This document shows positions 1 to 8,944 of a DNA stretch of 64,000 nucleotides, one piece after another. Positions within the stretch are counted from its first letter, which is position 1. Each line of letters opens with the position of its first letter. The notes beneath the pieces are model-generated. The model saw only the letters and a program-made list of their open reading frames with translations. It made no database searches and was not told where the DNA came from. Origin of the DNA: Nitrososphaerota archaeon (GTDB taxonomy: Archaea > Thermoproteota > Nitrososphaeria > Nitrososphaerales > Nitrosopumilaceae); the NCBI GenBank assembly GCA_028867785.1, contig JAGWFS010000006.1, positions 1 through 64,000 on the forward strand, given 5' to 3'. Both the position numbers and the translations under genes were made by a program.

Positions 1-784
1 TGGCCATTCTCTTTGTAAATACAGATACAATCGTTCTATCTATGTCAGACCTGACAAGCTCAATTATGTCAAATGATAGTGTAGGTTTTCCATAAATGTC
101 AGAGTGATAAAACCCGGCATTGGGATCAAGGCCGGATAAGATTATTATTTTTTCAACAGAGCCGTACGCAATTCCATACAGGTAGTTTAGGGTTGCATTA
201 AACGCGTCTCTGGCGGGGTTTTGACTTCTGTCCTTGAATTGCCATTTTATTGGCAGTGATTTGGAAACCGCACTGAAATACTGCATGGCTGACGAACCCT
301 CATATCCCAGCAGAGTATTTTTGGCATCAACAGAATAATCCAGGCGGCAAACAGATGATATGGACTTCGTAATGGCGGATATTGCCTTTTCTACCTGCTC
401 CGGCGCATTATCCCGGTTGTTCTTCAAATAACGCAAAAACTTTCTTTGTTTTTCAAGCTTTACCTGAACAATGTGTTTTGAGATCTCAAATGCGAGTTTT
501 GTTTCCTGTGTCAGATACTGGTTCCTCCGTATCTGGGTCGCTTTTCCGGGCGTGCTTGACCAGAGTCTTGCAATCGGCCTTCCAGCCCAGTCAGAGATCA
601 CCAGCTGGATTTCTTTCTCAATGCAAAGTCGAATTGCCTGAGTACTGACCAGAGAATTTGACGATATGATTATCACGTCTATCTTTTCTGCCGGAATTTC
701 AGAAGTTGAGTCGGCATTCTTTACAACAAACGATTCATGATCTCTTTTGATCACACTACCATGCGTGGCAACCTCAACAATCAT
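1..784 (-). CDS. cas1: CRISPR-associated endonuclease Cas1 (C-terminus cut by window edge)
   Basis: Cas1 is the integrase that, with Cas2, inserts new spacers into the CRISPR array. My reading of the minus strand gives 261 residues without a stop before the window edge. The N-terminal beta domain is followed by the alpha-helical catalytic domain. The metal ligands of the family are visible: Glu162 in LGYEGSSAMQYF, His227 in DPNAGFYHSD, and the acidic pair Asp239/Glu242 in SFDIIELVR. The ATG overlaps the cas6 stop as ATGA, so the two are translationally coupled. It is the last cas gene seen; cas2 and perhaps cas4 and the array would lie to the left, outside the window. The family call is very secure; the missing C-terminus cannot be assessed. 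Confidence 0.95.
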   Translation of the reverse strand, partial: MIVEVATHGSVIKRDHESFVVKNADSTSEIPAEKIDVIIISSNSLVSTQAIRLCIEKEIQLVISDWAGRPIARLWSSTPGKATQIRRNQYLTQETKLAFEISKHIVQVKLEKQRKFLRYLKNNRDNAPEQVEKAISAITKSISSVCRLDYSVDAKNTLLGYEGSSAMQYFSAVSKSLPIKWQFKDRSQNPARDAFNATLNYLYGIAYGSVEKIIILSGLDPNAGFYHSDIYGKPTLSFDIIELVRSDIDRTIVSVFTKRMA

Positions 785-1398
785 TTGATCCTCTCAATCA
801 CTCCAAATCCCTTTGAAACGCTTTTTCCAATCCCCAAAAATTTAGGAAGTGCTACATTTAACGCAAATTCACAATAAAATCCAACAAACTTATTTTTATG
901 GGCTTCAGTTTGAATTGGTTTGAATTTATTAATTTGTGCATTTATCTGAAATTTTACTCTTAATCCAAGACCCTTGAGAACGCTCAAAACATTTGCGGTC
1001 AATATTTTTTCTAAAAACGCTTTTCTTTTGTTTTTCTCAAGTGATCTGAATTTTTCATAATTGCTCTCGTTTAACGCAAGCCAAGGACTGACAAATCTGT
1101 ATACCGCGTATTCTTCCTTGATCTCAAATGTAGCAGTTGTCAAGTCCACATTGAATAGACTTATTTTTCCATCTTGTGTTATGAGACTGTCTAACTGTGA
1201 CATTTTGTCGAATACAATTTTTGAATAATTATTCAATCCAAGAACGAGTAGTTTTCTATTTACCTTTTTGTATTGCACCAGTGGATAATGAAATGAGTTA
1301 TCCGAATGGTGGTGGAATTCAGCATCAGATGCAAAAAGATAACCGAGGTATCCCCTGAGCTCGGTTGCTGTTATTTTGCTGGAATCCGCGTCAAGCAA
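781..1398 (-). CDS. cas6: CRISPR repeat endoribonuclease Cas6 (Cas6b-like)
   Basis: Cas6 cuts the pre-crRNA within each repeat and stays on the crRNA in type I-B Cascade. About 205 residues are encoded from a TTG start. A His-rich segment FHHH followed by YPLVQYKKV (residues about 28-46) is typical of the Cas6b group and probably includes the catalytic histidines. Near the C-terminus the glycine-rich loop FLGIGKSVSKGFG marks the second ferredoxin-like fold. The frame stays open upstream of the TTG to position 1428, and those codons read like the missing first beta strand (KIKISLCYSLL), so the real start may be an unusual codon nearer 1420. The gene sits between cas3 and cas1, overlapping cas1 by 4 bases. 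Confidence 0.85.
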   Translation of the reverse strand: MLDADSSKITATELRGYLGYLFASDAEFHHHSDNSFHYPLVQYKKVNRKLLVLGLNNYSKIVFDKMSQLDSLITQDGKISLFNVDLTTATFEIKEEYAVYRFVSPWLALNESNYEKFRSLEKNKRKAFLEKILTANVLSVLKGLGLRVKFQINAQINKFKPIQTEAHKNKFVGFYCEFALNVALPKFLGIGKSVSKGFGVIERIK

Positions 1399-1418
1399 TG
1401 AATAGCAGAGTGAGATTT

Positions 1419-3662
1419 TTATTTTTCAACCACATCCTTTGCCCACTTGTCCAAGCCCACTACTTTGTCATATACCTCATTAAGATGTTCCCATTTTGGC
1501 AAAAGTATGCTTTTTTCATATAATTCAGCATCAAAAAATTTTTCGATTCCAAGATTCTCCGGACTTTTTGGAAGATTGGCAGTTAGCGTTACAAACTTTC
1601 GAAATCTTTTTCTTTCCAAGTCTGAGAGAAATGTATTTTTAATTTGGTTCCACTGCGCTTGATTTTCAGGAATAAATACCGTTTCTTGGTCATCATCAGG
1701 CAGTACTTTTTCCTTGATGAATTTCCATACTTCCTCATAATCAAGACGAGTTATTAGTCTTGCAAGTTTTTTTGCTGATTCTTCGTTAGTTTTATTTTCT
1801 TCCCAGATTTTTTGATAGTACGATGGTAGTTCATCATACAGATCCGTGGATGAGCGCACTTTTCTAATTACCCTTAGCGATTCCTGCCATTCCAGTTTAC
1901 TGTAAGGTTTCCAGTCGTCTTTTGTATCTTTGAATACGGTCATAACCGCGTTATCTTTTTCTGCTTCCCTGTTGAGCCTCCCCATCGCCTGTATTATGTT
2001 ATCAAGAGGTGCAGCTTCCCTATACATTTGATCAAAGCTAACATCTACCCCGGCCTCTATAACTTGAGTAGACACTACAATGGAATCTGGTTTTACATTT
2101 TTCAATCTTTCAAGTCTATGGATCTTGCTAATCCCAGACGACATGTAAATTATGTCTGACTGTCCAAACTTCTTATTTATTTTTTCATACATTGCAAGGT
2201 TTTTCTTTCTGGTGTTGGACATAAAGAGAGATCTACCTGTTAGCTTGTTTGGAATTTCAAACGGTTCCAAGAATGAAATCCTTTTAAAAGTTTGCTGCAG
2301 GTATTCTCGTTTTACTTCTTTTTGAATTGATAGTTTCTTTATGTCTTTTAATTCATAGGGAATTGTAGCACTAACCAAAAGGATTTTTGAGTGAAGATAA
2401 AACGCAATTTGTTCAAATAATCCAACAAGTGTTGGGAGAATTAATTTTGGAATGGTTTGAACTTCGTCTATTATTAATAAAGAGTTTTTCAGAGATAACA
2501 GTTTTAGTTTGTCTGACTGTCTGTTAGAGAATAGAGTAATCAAAAGTCTCTGTGTCGTTGTAATTATGAATTCCTTGTTAAAGGACTCGTTTTCAAAATC
2601 CCAAGCATGTGCAGCAGAGACTCCCGTTTCCTGTTTTCTTTTTTCCTCGAGACTTCCTGAAAAGAGGTGACTATAGACAAGAATTTTTTCCTGATTTTTC
2701 ACTATACCAAATATTTTTTTTTCAAAGTCTTCTGTCAATGCAAGAAGAGGAGAAAAGTAATACACCCTCTCTAGCTTGTTATCGTGTTTATATCGTGAGA
2801 TCAGGTCCAAAAAGATTTTTGTTTTACCTATGCCAGTTGGAGCCTCTAGAGCTAAGACTCCGGAGGTAGTATCATGGTTTTCAAGGGCATGTTTTTGAAA
2901 TACGTCTCTTAGATATGCAAGTTTAGACTCCTTTGTTTTAGATTGTGCTACAAGTTTATCGGTATCAAAACTTATTTCAAAGCTGGGCGTATTCCACTCA
3001 TTAAAACTTCCTCTGTCTGCCTGAAGCAAAGCTGAAAATATGCATGATGATCTCAAAAAATCAAATAAACAGTTTTTATCATCAGATTCTAATTTTGATT
3101 TGAATTCAACCGGTCTTTGGAACTGGGAAAGACATGATTCCCAATCGAGTAATGAAAATTCATCATGGCATCTTGTGGATTCTACGAAATGTTTTAGGTA
3201 GTATGAGATTGCCATCTGCGAATTCTTGTATTTTTCAGTTTTATTATCCTGCTCTGGAAGTATGTTTTTCAGATTGGAATGATGCCCATAAATTGCATGT
3301 ATTGTCATGTCAATCGATTTTTCATCGAGTCCTATCTTTTCACCGAGTAGTTTCAATGCAGCCCATGCAGAAAAGGGAGAGTGGCTTTGCTCATATTTTT
3401 GCAGTACCGTTTCTTCCACGGATTTTCGCTTTTCCGCATCAGCATGAAAAATTTCTTGATAATACGGATTTATCTTTCCAATATCATGCAGCAGGCCGGC
3501 GTAATATGCCTCGTCTTCACAATTTAGATCGGTCTGGCTTGAAATCTCCTTTGCCTTGTTGGCCACTTTGATAAGATGATCTATCAAAAGTTTGTTGTCT
3601 GGATGAGAAAGGAACTGTGCGTATCTAGTATAAGCAGACAATTCCATCAGATATTTTGACAA
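1419..3662 (-). CDS. cas3: CRISPR-associated nuclease-helicase Cas3 (HD + DExH)
   Basis: Cas3 is recruited by target-bound Cascade and degrades the foreign DNA with an HD nuclease and an SF2 helicase. Both are present in one 747-residue chain. The HD domain shows LLHDIGK at residues 57-63 and further histidines in HAIYGHHSN (122-130). The helicase shows Walker A APTGIGKT (274-281), a DEVQ box (399-402), a VSATIP motif III and an arginine-finger segment QAMGRLNRE. The start overlaps the cas5 stop by 38 bases; Met6 (position 3647) is an alternative start with less overlap. All catalytic motifs are intact, so the enzyme looks functional. Confidence 0.95.
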   Translation of the reverse strand: MSKYLMELSAYTRYAQFLSHPDNKLLIDHLIKVANKAKEISSQTDLNCEDEAYYAGLLHDIGKINPYYQEIFHADAEKRKSVEETVLQKYEQSHSPFSAWAALKLLGEKIGLDEKSIDMTIHAIYGHHSNLKNILPEQDNKTEKYKNSQMAISYYLKHFVESTRCHDEFSLLDWESCLSQFQRPVEFKSKLESDDKNCLFDFLRSSCIFSALLQADRGSFNEWNTPSFEISFDTDKLVAQSKTKESKLAYLRDVFQKHALENHDTTSGVLALEAPTGIGKTKIFLDLISRYKHDNKLERVYYFSPLLALTEDFEKKIFGIVKNQEKILVYSHLFSGSLEEKRKQETGVSAAHAWDFENESFNKEFIITTTQRLLITLFSNRQSDKLKLLSLKNSLLIIDEVQTIPKLILPTLVGLFEQIAFYLHSKILLVSATIPYELKDIKKLSIQKEVKREYLQQTFKRISFLEPFEIPNKLTGRSLFMSNTRKKNLAMYEKINKKFGQSDIIYMSSGISKIHRLERLKNVKPDSIVVSTQVIEAGVDVSFDQMYREAAPLDNIIQAMGRLNREAEKDNAVMTVFKDTKDDWKPYSKLEWQESLRVIRKVRSSTDLYDELPSYYQKIWEENKTNEESAKKLARLITRLDYEEVWKFIKEKVLPDDDQETVFIPENQAQWNQIKNTFLSDLERKRFRKFVTLTANLPKSPENLGIEKFFDAELYEKSILLPKWEHLNEVYDKVVGLDKWAKDVVEK

Positions 3663-4362
3663 ATTTTGAAAGTTTAGGCTTTAGATTTTTATTCACAGTG
3701 AAAACGGACTTTATAGGTATCCAGTGCTTTAGTACCCTACTCTGGAATTCATTATTTGAGAAAAAGTGGTGCAGATGCCGTTCAATAATGACATGTGAAT
3801 TTTCATCTTTTCCACCCAGATCTATCTTGAATGTATCGGAATAGGTTTCAGATTCGTCAAGTATTACGCAAGAGGTGTCATTATTTTTTGCATCAGATTC
3901 CATAACGTTTTGATAAAATTTTAGATCAGAAACGACACATGGGCAATATGCATGTCCCAAATACGGCGAAAAAGAAAATTTGTTTTGTCGAATGGTATTT
4001 TCCAGTTTTTCCATCGTATTTTTGTCTGATGAGACGAATATGGTATATCTTGGCGAGTCTACAAGTTCTGATTTTACGGGTTTTGTTTTTGCTTCTTTGA
4101 GGGAGCGGTGATTTGTAAAGTAGACCACTTTTTTTGGCTCAGATTCAAACCTCAATCCAATCAATGTGTTTTTGTACAGTTCTAGATATTCGGAACTATA
4201 CAATTCTGCCAGTGAGTTACTTCTTTTTACCCCGATTATAGCGCCAATTATTCCTATTACGGCACTTTTTGACGGAATGAAGGAAACTGTCTGATGAGAC
4301 GTTACTGACGGATCTCGGAATGCGGCAAAGCTTCCTGAAACAGTAAATGAAATAATGTCCAA
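3625..4362 (-). CDS. cas5: CRISPR-associated protein Cas5 (type I-B)
   Basis: Cas5 is the RAMP-fold subunit that caps the 5' handle of the crRNA in Cascade. The 245-residue product has the family signature at its N-terminus: a first beta strand ISFTVSGSFAAFRDP followed by PSKSAVIGIIGAIIGV, where the conserved helix starts. The middle holds the typical YTIFVSSD strand. Size and order (cas7 directly upstream, cas3 downstream) match type I-B. The ATG follows the cas7 stop with no spacer, which points to one transcript. Confidence 0.9.
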   Translation of the reverse strand: MDIISFTVSGSFAAFRDPSVTSHQTVSFIPSKSAVIGIIGAIIGVKRSNSLAELYSSEYLELYKNTLIGLRFESEPKKVVYFTNHRSLKEAKTKPVKSELVDSPRYTIFVSSDKNTMEKLENTIRQNKFSFSPYLGHAYCPCVVSDLKFYQNVMESDAKNNDTSCVILDESETYSDTFKIDLGGKDENSHVIIERHLHHFFSNNEFQSRVLKHWIPIKSVFTVNKNLKPKLSKFVKISDGIVCLY

Positions 4363-5301
4363 TTACAATTCTTCTACTTTGATGTGGGCGTCCTTTAGTT
4401 TTGATATTAGCGATTTAACATCAGAATTCAATTCTTCACATCCCTTGACTCTTACAAGTTTAACCTCATCGCTTCTTTTCCCAAGTACTTCGATTAGTCT
4501 TGTAAAATCAAACGGGGACTTCACAAGGGATGTCGTTTTTTCACTCATCTCTTTTTTCTCCGCTACCAATCTTGGGAGATCGTTATAGATAGTAGACTCG
4601 TAGGTCACTTCCAAGAATAGAATGCTCCGTTGTGGGTATTTTGAGCGTGTTATCAGATGGTTTGTTCCGTCCCAGAGACATGTGAAAAGTTTTTCTTCCT
4701 TTTCGCTGAACTTTTTCATGATTTTTTCATCTTTTATATATATGCCAAGGTTTGTCGGATTTACAGCACCGTGAATTTTTATCAGCGCGTATTCAACTGA
4801 ATAAAACTTGCCAAATGTTGAATATTGTTTTTGTCCTTCCTTTTCTTTTCCTACGAATCTGCCAGAAATAGTGGGATTAATCACGTTGACCTGATTCGTA
4901 CTTCGCCCTATTCCAAATTGGACAGGTCCGGTTATTTTGGCAGAATCTCCACCGCTTTCATCACCTTTTGCTTCGCGAATTGTTACCAATGCTCCAAAAA
5001 GCGGAGTATCAAATGTGGAATTGAGTAATTTTGCAATGACATCACCTTTCAGGTCACCAATTATTTCTTTAGCCCTTTTATCAGCGGTTGTTGGCAAGCC
5101 ATTATCACCATAATCCACAAACAATGTTTCTCCAAGAACATTCTTTGCGTGATCGCGAATTGTTCGCTTTATTCTGACATCTGTAACCAATATGGTGCCA
5201 TCTGGCATCAATCTTGGTTGGTTTTCAAATCCGGGATCTCCGTTTGGATTCTGCCTTGATTCATAATAGAATAGAATCTCTTTCTTGTCTTTGCTATTCA
5301 T
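4363..5301 (-). CDS. cas7: CRISPR-associated protein Cas7 (Csh2 family, type I-B backbone)
   Basis: Cas7 polymerises along the crRNA as the backbone of Cascade. The 312-residue protein carries the Csh2/Cas7 hallmarks: RQNPNGDPGFENQPR near residues 16-30, then TDVRIKRTIRD, which is the RNA-binding helix, and the mid-protein GPVQFGIGRSTNQV segment with the SGRFVGKEK loop. It overlaps the cas8b end by 8 bases and abuts cas5. The family is strongly recognised; no defect is visible. Confidence 0.93.
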   Translation of the reverse strand: MNSKDKKEILFYYESRQNPNGDPGFENQPRLMPDGTILVTDVRIKRTIRDHAKNVLGETLFVDYGDNGLPTTADKRAKEIIGDLKGDVIAKLLNSTFDTPLFGALVTIREAKGDESGGDSAKITGPVQFGIGRSTNQVNVINPTISGRFVGKEKEGQKQYSTFGKFYSVEYALIKIHGAVNPTNLGIYIKDEKIMKKFSEKEEKLFTCLWDGTNHLITRSKYPQRSILFLEVTYESTIYNDLPRLVAEKKEMSEKTTSLVKSPFDFTRLIEVLGKRSDEVKLVRVKGCEELNSDVKSLISKLKDAHIKVEEL

Positions 5302-6985
5302 TTTTCAATCCTCCCATGACTTCAAATGTGCCCTTATAAAAAAAATATGAGTAATCATTCTGTGCGGCATCATCAGAAACCTCGCCCAGATTTTGTTCTT
5401 TGATAAACTCAATTATCGTATCTTTGAACTGCTGCTCTGCCTTTGAGAGGTTGATTCCCAAACCAACTCGCTGCAATACAAAACGCAGCTTTTCTCGGTC
5501 ATATTTTGAATAGGTGAGAATGTCTGCCAGTGAGTTACTTTCCTCTTTTGAATTTCGCTTGAACTTGATGTACGCACCGGCTATTTTACCAATTGATAAT
5601 GCAAACTGTTCGTTTGTATCCATTGTACTGCCTGTGGAGATATTACATAAAAGAATTATGCAAAAATCTGCCTTGGAGAAAAACTCTAGCGTTTCACGAT
5701 TTGGTTTTTTTATCCATTCAAAAAGTTTTTTTCTCAATAATTTATTGAAAATAGAGAGAATTCTTTGTTTTTCGATGACATTTCCAAGTATGAATGTTCG
5801 CACTGCAAATAGATAATCAGCCCACAGGGTAGTTTTCTTTTCAGAGTCTATGAAAATCTCGAGTGTCATCGGTAGAACTCTCAGTCCTTTTACTCTGCCA
5901 AAAATCGATTCAAGGCGTTTCATTGTTACATTGTCATCAATTAGGATCTCGATCTTTGCATTGGTTTGTTTGTAACACATTGTCTTCATTTGTGATTGGT
6001 CGTTCTCAATATTGCCTGATTTTTGTTTTAATATCTCATAGTTTCTAAAAATTTGGCTATAGATTCCCGTGTTTGTTTTAATGAATTTTATGTAAGGATC
6101 ATTAATATTTGTAAAAAACCAATTCAGACCCGAAATGTTGAAAACCTCATCCATCGGAATATTTATCCTTTCAAGTGATGAGGAGCTGATATTCAGGTTT
6201 TTATAAAATTCTTCTCCCTTGGTAAGATTGATTGTAAAAGCAGGATCATCATATGAAAGAAATTTTGCATTAACAGTAGGTTTGTTGTCAAATGAATTGC
6301 CAGAATTACCAAACGAATCAATAAATCCCACACCTGGTGTTTGCTTAGATTCAGGCTTGAATTCTATTTTTTCATTTGATGGAAGTATTATCAATCTAAA
6401 ATTAGATTTTGTTTTAAAGTCTTCAAATTTGCTAGACTTAACAAACCCGAAAAACTTTTTTGCTATTTTTACGAAGAGTGTCGCACGAAATTTCTTATTT
6501 TCGTCTATTATTCCAGCGTTGACATATGCGTCAAAAATGTTTTGATCGGCAATTTTATAATTTTCCTTGTCAATTTTTGTCAGAACTTCACCATTTGCAT
6601 CCATCTTTTCCTTTTCTGTAAGTAAATCAAGTTCTGCTGTAAATTTATTTTTTTTATCATCGATTGTTAGTCGTAATAGCGGATCCTTTTTCTTTGAGCT
6701 TTCAAAAGAGCCATAAATTTCTAGATATGGTTTTGCGGAATTAGCACCGGCATAGCGATATGGTAGGTTCAACTTGGATAAGGAGGCGGTGATTAATGGC
6801 ATTTGAAGCCATTCTTGAATAAAGGAAAATTTCTGGTTTTTCTCGCCTGCACCATAGTTGTCAAGTGCTTTTTCATCTACCAAGACTTCGTTCTTGTTTA
6901 CAAATATTTTTTTTAATGGAAAAATGTTTTTTACTGGATTTTTATCGTTTTCCTTGTTTTTCAAGTATAGTTCGTATGCTAACAT
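5294..6985 (-). CDS. cas8b: CRISPR-associated large subunit Cas8b (Csh1-like)
   Basis: Cas8b is the large subunit of type I-B Cascade, used for PAM recognition and Cas3 recruitment. The 563-residue product (570 from an upstream GTG at 7006) fits the Csh1 length. Sequence conservation in this family is low; the call rests on size, on the Lys/Asn-rich N-terminal domain, on the C-terminal helical region and above all on its position directly before cas7-cas5-cas3. A TATA element at 7006-7015 lies about 26 bases before the ATG at 6985 and overlaps the GTG, which favours 6985 as a leaderless start. It is the first gene of the cas operon. Confidence 0.85.
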   Translation of the reverse strand: MLAYELYLKNKENDKNPVKNIFPLKKIFVNKNEVLVDEKALDNYGAGEKNQKFSFIQEWLQMPLITASLSKLNLPYRYAGANSAKPYLEIYGSFESSKKKDPLLRLTIDDKKNKFTAELDLLTEKEKMDANGEVLTKIDKENYKIADQNIFDAYVNAGIIDENKKFRATLFVKIAKKFFGFVKSSKFEDFKTKSNFRLIILPSNEKIEFKPESKQTPGVGFIDSFGNSGNSFDNKPTVNAKFLSYDDPAFTINLTKGEEFYKNLNISSSSLERINIPMDEVFNISGLNWFFTNINDPYIKFIKTNTGIYSQIFRNYEILKQKSGNIENDQSQMKTMCYKQTNAKIEILIDDNVTMKRLESIFGRVKGLRVLPMTLEIFIDSEKKTTLWADYLFAVRTFILGNVIEKQRILSIFNKLLRKKLFEWIKKPNRETLEFFSKADFCIILLCNISTGSTMDTNEQFALSIGKIAGAYIKFKRNSKEESNSLADILTYSKYDREKLRFVLQRVGLGINLSKAEQQFKDTIIEFIKEQNLGEVSDDAAQNDYSYFFYKGTFEVMGGLKNE

Positions 6986-7005
6986 GAAAAGTTTAGTGTA
7001 TTCCA

Positions 7006-7015
7006 CTTTATAATG
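7006..7015 (-). promoter_or_regulatory. TATA box of the cas operon
   Basis: On the minus strand the sequence reads CATTATAAAG. Its centre is about 26 bases from the ATG at 6985, the usual archaeal TATA-to-start distance, so the cas transcript probably begins at or next to that ATG. The 256-base gap between the cas operon and the divergent integrase gene shows no other clear signal and no CRISPR repeats. Confidence 0.5.
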
Positions 7016-7262
7016 GGTTGCGGTGATTTTCCCGTTTCAGTAATTTTGTTGCTAAGTGTAAATTTTCAACATGTGGCGATCAAGTCTGTAAATGTTCCAT
7101 AAGGATTTCATTTCGTGCCTGTTATGAAACGTTTGATTAAACTCACTGGTTTTCACCACGATTACAATTGAAATTAACCAATAAATCATACTTTCGTTAT
7201 TATTCGGTATTAAAGATGAAAAACAGTCGGAAGTAAACACTTTCATAAATACTAGTTTCTGG

Positions 7263-8693
7263 ATGCTTAAGGCGTCAAAAATGAAATCCTCAAGAATATT
7301 GGACGGAAATTACCTGATGCCTTGGGATGTAAAATCCGATGATCCCGAGATAAACCGCCAAAACGAGCTTCTTTTCTCATCCGATCACGATTTATCAGAA
7401 GAAAATCAAAATACTATGTATTCTCATACCATATCTGATGAGGACTGCTTGCACAAAGCCAGCAGACAGTCTGATATGGGAAACAAAAAACTTCGATCAA
7501 CTACAACCGCCAAAACAGTACAAAAACAGAGCAGACGACAAGTTCTGCTTTCCAACCCAACCATAAAGCGATGGTATGACAACCTGGCAAGAGGCAGCAA
7601 TATCACGGCCTACCAAAGGCTCTACAGGCTGGACAAGTTCTGCAAGGAACACCAGATGACACCAATGCAGCTTGCAGATCTTGCAATGAGAGATCTCAGT
7701 GCAGTGACAAACCTTCTGGCAGATCACATAACTGCAATGGAGGAACAAGGAAGATCTGGGAGTTACATCCAGAGTTTTGTCGTAGTCGTGAAGAGCTGGC
7801 TTGAGAACTTTGACATCAAACTGGTAAGAAGACTCAAGGTGTCAAACAGAAATGCCACACCGACTCTTGAATCTGAAAAGGTTCCCGAGTCGCAAGAGAT
7901 AGCAGAGATGCTCAGCAGGGCAGATCTTCGCACAGGTGCAATAGAGTCGCTTGTTGCAAAGGCCGGACTGAGGCCACAGGTATTGGGCAACCACAACGCA
8001 ACAGATGGACTGACCATGAACGACCTTCCAGACATTGCCATAGTGCAGGGTGTAACCCAATGCATTAGAATGCCTGCAAGGGTCATCGTGAGAAGAAACA
8101 TCTCAAAGGCGAGGCACCAGTACTTTACCTTCCTGACACCAAGCGGGGTACAGAGACTACTGGCATACCTAAATGACAGGCTTGCAAAGGGAGATGTTCT
8201 CAATGCAGACTCGCCAGTAATTGCGCCAGACATTGACCACTCTTACGGAAGGGGTGCCAACGATGGAAAGAGGTTCCTTACAACAAGCCAGATAACATCG
8301 CTTGTGAGAAAGTCGCTAAGGCCAAGGTTTGGCTGGAGGCCATATGTGCTAAGGGCATACTTTGACACACAGCTGCTAATCGCAGAGGCAAGAGGGAAGA
8401 TTGCACATGATTTCCGTGTTTTCTTCATGGGTCACAAGGGAAGCATGGAAGCCAAGTACACTACAAACAAGGGAATATTGCCAGAGATGCTTGTCAACGA
8501 GATGAGCGAGGCCTTCAAGCGATGCGAGGAATTTCTTGACTTGGAAACAAGACATGAAGATCCATTGCAGAAAAAAAGAGAGGAGGCACGTCAAATGATA
8601 GAGCGAGCTGCCCCTGAAAAGGTGCAAGAGATGATCAGGTTTCTGACATCTGCAAATCCCGATTCAGAGGGTGGCAACGAGCGAGGAAGCTGA
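7263..8693 (+). CDS. Tyrosine recombinase / integrase
   Basis: This is a site-specific DNA recombinase of the tyrosine (phage integrase) class. The 476 residues comprise a long poorly conserved N-terminal part, a SAM-like core-binding domain (about 95-190) and a C-terminal catalytic domain. The catalytic set can be placed as Arg237 (AGLRPQ), the YVLR box at 361-364 (His of the usual HxxR replaced by Tyr), His391 (MGHKG) and the nucleophile Tyr399 (AKYTT). A C-terminal charged helix follows. A TATA-like TTTCATAAAT (7241-7250) would place transcription start near 7272, so Met7 (7281) may be the true start. It lies between the CRISPR operon and tRNA-Arg, which suggests a role in island integration, though no duplicated attachment site was found. 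Confidence 0.8.
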   Translation: MLKASKMKSSRILDGNYLMPWDVKSDDPEINRQNELLFSSDHDLSEENQNTMYSHTISDEDCLHKASRQSDMGNKKLRSTTTAKTVQKQSRRQVLLSNPTIKRWYDNLARGSNITAYQRLYRLDKFCKEHQMTPMQLADLAMRDLSAVTNLLADHITAMEEQGRSGSYIQSFVVVVKSWLENFDIKLVRRLKVSNRNATPTLESEKVPESQEIAEMLSRADLRTGAIESLVAKAGLRPQVLGNHNATDGLTMNDLPDIAIVQGVTQCIRMPARVIVRRNISKARHQYFTFLTPSGVQRLLAYLNDRLAKGDVLNADSPVIAPDIDHSYGRGANDGKRFLTTSQITSLVRKSLRPRFGWRPYVLRAYFDTQLLIAEARGKIAHDFRVFFMGHKGSMEAKYTTNKGILPEMLVNEMSEAFKRCEEFLDLETRHEDPLQKKREEARQMIERAAPEKVQEMIRFLTSANPDSEGGNERGS

Positions 8694-8787
8694 GCAACTC
8701 ATCCCAACCGGATGGTTGTTTGTAGGCGTTCTGCCAAGCGGCAAGGTCATCTTGCAGAAATAAATAACCCCCTGTTAGAGGGCACTT

Positions 8788-8862
8788 GGGCCTGTAGCTC
8801 AGCATGGATAGAGTGCTGGACTTCTAATCCAGTGGTCAAGGGATCGAAGCCCTTCGGGCCCG
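8788..8862 (+). tRNA. tRNA-Arg (anticodon TCT)
   Basis: A full cloverleaf can be drawn. The acceptor stem GGGCCTG pairs with CGGGCCC with one G-T pair, the anticodon stem CTGGA/TCCAG closes loop CTTCTAA giving anticodon TCT, and the T stem AAGGG/CCCTT closes loop ATCGAAG. The CCA end is not encoded. The integrase gene ends about 95 bases upstream, making this tRNA a candidate integration target. Confidence 0.93.
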
Positions 8863-8944
8863 TATAATCTGTTTGTACGCATACACCGACTTTCAACTTT
8901 CTTCAATTACAATGCAACTTGGAAATAAAACAGAAAAGCAATCC

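What the first reader, a model, noticed from the sequence alone, without database searches (positions are those of the whole stretch)
1..7006. Type I-B CRISPR operon with cas6 moved between cas3 and cas1
Seen: cas8b-cas7-cas5-cas3-cas6-cas1 in one direction, with overlaps at most junctions. Known: the usual I-B order has cas6 at the front and cas4 between cas3 and cas1. Here cas4 is not in that slot and cas6 is coupled to cas1. This may couple crRNA processing and adaptation in expression, or mark a separate lineage of archaeal I-B systems.
Basis: partly seen in the sequence, partly recalled or inferred. Interest (0 to 1): 0.6.

Follow-up and report, generated by a model that had tools for sequence, protein, structure and literature searches.

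The report
Type I-B CRISPR operon on mobile island
This is most of an archaeal CRISPR immune system whose gene order is the normal order for its lineage, not a one-off rearrangement; the more notable point is that it is the main cargo of a small mobile DNA island inserted in a transfer-RNA gene.

Summary
On the minus strand of window 1-7006 lie cas8b-cas7-cas5-cas3-cas6-cas1; cas1 is cut by the contig end. The order differs from the usual I-B order (cas6-8b-7-5-3-4-1-2), which I verified in haloarchaeal and two other Thermoproteota loci.

It is no oddity of this genome. All 13 other complete loci of this Cas8b1/Cas6b lineage, in three archaeal families, read cas8b-7-5-3-6-1-2-4; an array follows cas4 in all seven checked for it. 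So cas4 is last, not missing, and cas6 has not simply moved: it is another Cas6 family (PF17262/PF17955; usual-order Cas6 is PF01881). Two other groups share the effector genes but have different, differently placed cas1/cas2/cas4. The lineage, and a copy on an integrated element, are published (Krupovic 2019, PMC6563490).

Beyond the given coordinates, the operon sits in a small integrated element in the 5' part of tRNA-Arg(TCT), about 11 kb plus the array: a pNOB8-type tyrosine recombinase, a 20-bp att repeat, a Fic/Doc gene. Its other end is on another contig, which breaks inside a CRISPR repeat. The closest relative has the same kind of cassette at a different tRNA-Arg gene. Verdict: new member of a known kind.

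The parts
2..784 (-). cas1, 3' end cut off by the contig end (261 of about 316 codons)
   Evidence: PF01867 6e-64, PADLOC Cas1b 5e-75; length from L015
781..1398 (-). cas6, Cas6b family (start codon uncertain, TTG as listed)
   Evidence: PF17262 9e-39, PF17955 2e-13
1419..3662 (-). cas3, HD nuclease-helicase fusion, motifs HDIGK, GIGKT, DEVQ, SAT, QAMGR present
   Evidence: TIGR01587, TIGR01596, PADLOC Cas3b; motifs
3625..4362 (-). cas5b
   Evidence: PF09704 2e-12, TIGR02592 1.5e-23
4363..5301 (-). cas7b (Csh2-like)
   Evidence: PF05107 1e-36, TIGR02590 9e-34
5294..7006 (-). cas8b1, large subunit of Cascade
   Evidence: PADLOC PDLC01110 2e-167
5294..5623 (-). candidate internally started Cas11b small subunit (Met462 of Cas8b, 109 aa); inferred
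   Evidence: Met at the exact alignment column in 13 of 18 Cas8b1, within 3 residues in 3 more; precedent in Haloferax, PMC11899642
7007..7262 (.). intergenic region between divergent cas8b and integrase; presumed promoter region; no CRISPR-repeat-like element
7263..8693 (+). tyrosine recombinase (integrase) of the element, pNOB8-type R...YxxR...Y
   Evidence: invariant R237, Y361, R364, H391, Y399 in 25 homologues; fold matches XerA, integron integrase, Cre
8740..8785 (+). sequence upstream of the tRNA supplied by the element (replacement promoter, inferred)
   Evidence: differs from the native upstream sequence kept on C272; resembles the sequence upstream of the same tRNA in G292
8786..8805 (+). 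att site, right copy: TTGGGCCTGTAGCTCAGCAT; left copy at G000:C272:210927-210946 (L114:6928-6947)
   Evidence: exact 20-bp repeat
8787..8863 (+). tRNA-Arg (TCT), integration target, intact
   Evidence: ARAGORN and Rfam

Best explanation
Window 1-8805 is the right half of a small integrated mobile element whose main cargo is a type I-B CRISPR-Cas system of the archaeal Cas8b1/Cas6b lineage. Shown: effector genes cas8b-7-5-3 are followed by cas6b-cas1 and, in relatives, by cas2-cas4 and the array; this order is fixed in the lineage. Shown: the recombinase gene and the cas operon lie between a 20-bp repeat of the 5' end of tRNA-Arg(TCT) here and a second copy on contig C272, which ends in a CRISPR repeat. 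Inferred: the recombinase integrated (and may excise) the element at that repeat; Cas8b-7-5 with Cas6-made crRNA form Cascade and recruit Cas3 to destroy invading DNA; Cas1-2-4 add spacers at the cas4-proximal end of the array. The unusual order reflects how effector and adaptation blocks were joined in this lineage, with a distinct Cas6 family beside the adaptation genes; it does not reflect a special coupling of crRNA processing with adaptation.
For: Family matches for all six genes. Same order in 13 of 13 complete relatives, array after cas4 in 7 of 7 checked. Cas6 of a different Pfam family from usual-order loci. Same effector family with other, differently placed adaptation genes in Micrarchaeota and family f20. 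Element: recombinase signature and fold; glycosylase-tRNA-Arg adjacency in 5 of 5 relatives and its interruption here; att copy and cut CRISPR repeat at the end of C272; lower G+C of cas genes and left arm, 37% against 41%; same recombinase-cas8b pair at another tRNA in G292; different neighbours in other cas loci.
Against: The two halves are on different contigs and the middle (array, cas4, cas2, cas1 end) is not in hand, so the join is inferred. The element boundaries in G292 rest on a 15-bp repeat. Most other loci of the lineage have no such recombinase close by, so mobility of this kind is shown for two genomes only. Activity of the immune system and of the recombinase is untested.
Confidence: 0.88

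Rival explanations
1. One reading: cas6 was relocated within an ordinary I-B operon so that crRNA processing and spacer acquisition are expressed together.
For: cas6 and cas1 overlap by 4 nt in 13 of 14 relatives.
Against: Most other junctions overlap as tightly; all cas genes lie in one direction, so one transcript is the simplest reading in either order; the Cas6 is of another family, not a moved copy.
Confidence: 0.07
2. The cas operon is chromosomal and the recombinase beside it belongs to an unrelated element end; the att repeat is a remnant of another event at the tRNA.
For: The recombinase family is common (53 of 200 genomes of the family), and several cas loci of the lineage have no recombinase near.
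Against: Both chromosomal flanks of the tRNA-Arg site are syntenic with cas-free relatives, and the CRISPR repeat lies at the far end from the recombinase, so cas genes and array fall between the att copies. The closest cas relative has the same recombinase-cas8b pair at another tRNA.
Confidence: 0.06
3. The cas6-cas1-cas2-cas4 block was captured whole from a type III-associated adaptation cassette and joined to I-B effector genes.
For: Published Cas1 tree places this clade among type III Cas1 (PMC6563490); a Cas6b lies at the end of a gene row whose ORF sizes suggest type III-A in f20 (L056; type not tested); adaptation genes differ between groups that share effectors.
Against: My trees held no type III rows; Cas6 also occurs with the effectors in L054, where the contig ends before cas1 can be seen.
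Confidence: 0.3

Closest known systems
Thaumarchaeal cryptic integrated elements with I-B CRISPR-Cas: NitEve-E4 and NitVie-E4 (Krupovic et al. 2019, PMC6563490)
   Same: Integrated element with integrase and a complete I-B cas set plus array; the NitEve-E4 Cas1 forms a clade with N. viennensis and Nitrosopumilus sp. LS, and loci named or inferred to be those are in the set studied here (L021/L028, L017, L018).
   Different: This one sits in the 5' part of tRNA-Arg(TCT) (in that study all but one tRNA insertion were at the 3' end) and is small, about 11 kb plus array (NitVie-E4 is 20.2 kb).
Type I-B loci of haloarchaea (Haloferax mediterranei, Haloarcula hispanica, Halobiforma lacisalsi plasmids)
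   Same: Same set of eight cas genes, same cas8b-7-5-3 block
   Different: cas6 first and of family PF01881, cas4 between cas3 and cas1, Cas8b of other families
I-B locus of a Micrarchaeota MAG (JAOAJL010000008.1, L031)
   Same: Cas8b1 family and cas8b-7-5-3 block, Cas7 54-58% identical
   Different: Order cas1-cas2-cas4-cas8b-7-5-3 with dissimilar adaptation proteins; contig ends after cas3

Membership tests
Type I-B CRISPR-Cas | Cas8b large subunit with Cas7b and Cas5b | tested here: met
   PADLOC Cas8b1 2e-167; Csh2 and Cas5h matches; the Cas5 and Cas7 scores are below NCBI's cut-offs for its I-B models
Type I-B CRISPR-Cas | Cas3 with HD nuclease and helicase | tested here: met
   TIGR01587, TIGR01596 and motifs
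Type I-B CRISPR-Cas | Cas6 that makes crRNA | tested here: met
   Cas6b N and C domains; activity not testable here
Type I-B CRISPR-Cas | Cas1-Cas2(-Cas4) and a CRISPR array | tested here: inconclusive
   cas1 in window; cas2 and cas4 not in the assembly; cut CRISPR repeat at end of C272; complete in 13 relatives
Usual I-B gene order (cas6-8b-7-5-3-4-1-2) | cas6 in front, cas4 between cas3 and cas1 | tested here: not met
   for the window; for the usual order
Integrated mobile element (cryptic integrated element) | Integrase gene | tested here: met
   Signature residues and fold
Integrated mobile element (cryptic integrated element) | Direct repeats at the ends and an occupied site that is empty in relatives | tested here: met
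   20-bp repeat; glycosylase-tRNA-Arg intact in 5 relatives
Integrated mobile element (cryptic integrated element) | No viral structural or conjugation genes | tested here: inconclusive
   None recognised in the roughly 10 kb seen; the stretch between the two contigs is not in hand

The most novel reading that the evidence does not exclude
The I-B system spreads through ammonia-oxidizing archaea as a nearly self-contained recombinase-CRISPR-Cas cassette of about 11-13 kb that moves between different tRNA genes, entering one from the 5' side and restoring its promoter.
Probability: 0.45. Interest if true: 0.55.

Novelty: new member of a known kind. Interest (0 to 1): 0.38.

Why it matters
It shows that the odd order is an inherited property of a whole archaeal I-B lineage with its own Cas6 family, and that effector and adaptation blocks are exchanged as units. 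It also adds a compact, well-delimited case of a CRISPR-Cas system as cargo of a small integrative element in a group of archaea whose immunity is little studied.

Tried and rejected
A second cas1, cas2 or cas4 elsewhere in the genome: none. A CRISPR array in this genome by Rfam model: none; the cut repeat on C272 was found only by following the chromosomal flank. Att as the 3' end of the tRNA: one copy only in the window; the repeat is the 5' end. A CRISPR-repeat-like element (as in CreTA) in the cas8b-integrase gap or the left arm: no better than shuffled sequence. Naming the integrase by Pfam, PHROGs or PDB sequence: no match, so alignment and fold were used. Reading the G292 C10 junction as an excised circle: rejected, its upstream sequence is not the other end of the element. 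An empty site for G292 from the gene beside tRNA-Arg(GCG) in two relatives: no match on C76. A survey centred on Micrarchaeota: not possible with the tool.

Full report
Observation. The six minus-strand ORFs of 2-7006 are cas8b1, cas7b, cas5b, cas3, cas6b and cas1 in order of transcription, each with strong family matches. Base 1 is the end of contig C294, so cas1 is cut at 261 of about 316 codons and this contig says nothing about cas2, cas4 or the array. The rest of the assembly holds no Cas2, Cas4 or second Cas1 match.

Is the order special to this genome? No. Cas8b was found in 11 of 400 genomes of the order. Every locus that is complete on its contig reads cas8b-cas7-cas5-cas3-cas6-cas1-cas2-cas4. 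An array of 36-37-nt repeats follows cas4 in all seven of these. A phylum-wide search with the Cas6b domain (15 of 398 genomes) added six complete loci from another family, f18 (kinship 'same phylum'), with the same order. That makes 13 of 13: L015, L016, L017, L018, L020, L021, L022, L049, L050, L051, L052, L053, L055. L020 and L022 have a split cas8b, and L020 a split cas7, so some copies look decayed.

The usual order was checked, not recalled. cas6-8b-7-5-3-4-1-2 is present on plasmids of Haloferax mediterranei, Haloarcula hispanica and Halobiforma lacisalsi and in two Thermoproteota genomes of other families (L177, L182). The cas6 proteins tested from such front positions match PF01881, while the lineage here matches PF17262 and PF17955. 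So 'moved' is the wrong word: a different Cas6 family sits beside the adaptation genes.

Modules. Two other groups carry the same effector family. A Micrarchaeota locus reads cas1-2-4-8b-7-5-3, and family f20 has cas4, cas1 and cas2 upstream in mixed orientation. Effector proteins stay similar (Cas7 54-58% for Micrarchaeota) but the Micrarchaeota adaptation proteins do not (Cas1 35%, Cas2 about 30%, Cas4 about 25%), and the Cas1 rows of both groups have very long branches. With the published statement that this Cas1 clade nests among type III Cas1 (PMC6563490), this favours block-wise joining of effector and adaptation genes. Whether the block came from type III was not tested here.

Coupling. 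cas6 and cas1 overlap by 4 nt in 13 of 14 relatives with both genes (11 nt in the other), but most other junctions overlap as well. Nothing in the sequence points to separate regulation of cas6 with cas1.

The mobile element. Divergent from cas8b lies a 476-aa ORF without a family match. Its 25-member alignment has invariant R237, Y361xxR364, H391 and Y399, the pNOB8-type pattern described for archaeal integrases (PMC8371274). A moderate-confidence model (pLDDT 69) matches XerA, integron integrase and Cre first. The ORF ends 93 bp before tRNA-Arg(TCT). In five relatives a 281-aa gene (DNA-glycosylase-like, my reading of the sequence) stands directly 5' of this tRNA, and in four of them the genes on the 3' side match the window from 11588 on. 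In this genome that gene lies near the end of contig C272. 31 bp after its stop comes TTGGGCCTGTAGCTCAGCAT, exactly the 20 bp at window 8786-8805, then about 1.3 kb with a Fic/Doc gene (PF02661), and the contig ends inside a CRISPR repeat, 31 of 32 bases identical to that of the closest relative. Both halves break where the array and the remaining cas genes should be. About 10.1 kb are seen; comparison with L015 puts the missing cas1 end, cas2, cas4 and leader at about 1.1 kb, plus the array. G+C of the cas genes and left arm (36.6%, 36.8%) is below the chromosome's 41%.

There the recombinase end abuts the 3' end of tRNA-Arg(GCG): the last 77 bp of contig C1 equal the first 77 of C76. A 15-bp copy of the tRNA end lies about 13.2 kb further on. 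The other cas loci of the lineage sit among different genes again. The locus therefore moves, at least on an evolutionary time scale.

Known or new. Krupovic et al. 2019 described thaumarchaeal integrated elements carrying I-B cas, and this very Cas1 clade. The 2.95-Mb N. evergladensis genome with one 37-bp-repeat array beside cas genes was published in 2014 (PMC4084955); G086 has that size, and I take G086 and G083 to be N. evergladensis and N. viennensis from size alone. Not found stated in the papers read: the fixed order across three families, the separate Cas6 family, and this island with its 5' tRNA target. I class it as a new member of a known kind.

How it works. Shown: gene content, order, motifs, att repeats. 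Inferred from established I-B biology: Cas6b cuts the repeat, Cas8b-7-5 form Cascade, Cas3 degrades the target, Cas1-2-4 add spacers beside cas4. A conserved internal Met in Cas8b (exact column in 13 of 18) is a candidate start of Cas11b, as reported for Haloferax (PMC11899642).

Noticed in passing
L032:10001-11704 (IMGVR_UViG_3300038673_000996): A contig filed as viral carries, a few hundred bases after tail-like virion genes, a Cas8b of this lineage that resembles the f18 family's; the contig ends inside or just after it. Either a virus with its own I-B genes or a virus end beside a host cas locus.
   Followed up: partly
window 8660-8761: A +1-frame ORF overlapping the 3' end of the integrase gene (QRVATSEEAEQLIPTGWLFVGVLPSGKVILQK) is also present behind related integrases in L109 and L110; possibly a separated C-terminal domain or a frameshift.
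   Followed up: partly
L048:7602-12121 (G218): A locus with cas3-cas6-cas1-cas2-cas4 but no cas8b, cas7 or cas5; the genome gave no Cas8b match: adaptation and processing genes without Cascade.
   Followed up: no
L110:726-1092 (G000:C254): A 3' fragment of the same integrase family ends just before tRNA-Gly(TCC) on a 4-kb contig, the same arrangement as in the window: another element end in this genome.
   Followed up: no
L152:1-77 (G292:C10): A second contig ends in the same 77 bp (tRNA-Arg(GCG) end plus recombinase end) as C1 with other sequence upstream: tandem elements or strain variation at that site.
   Followed up: partly
L114:7657-8082 (G000:C272): A Fic/Doc-family gene is the only sizeable ORF in the left arm of the element; a possible toxin-like companion, without an evident antitoxin gene in view.
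   Followed up: partly
L060 (G200:C8:20658-20842): A second contig end with the same CRISPR repeat as the cas-linked array in G200: assemblies of this group break at arrays.
   Followed up: no
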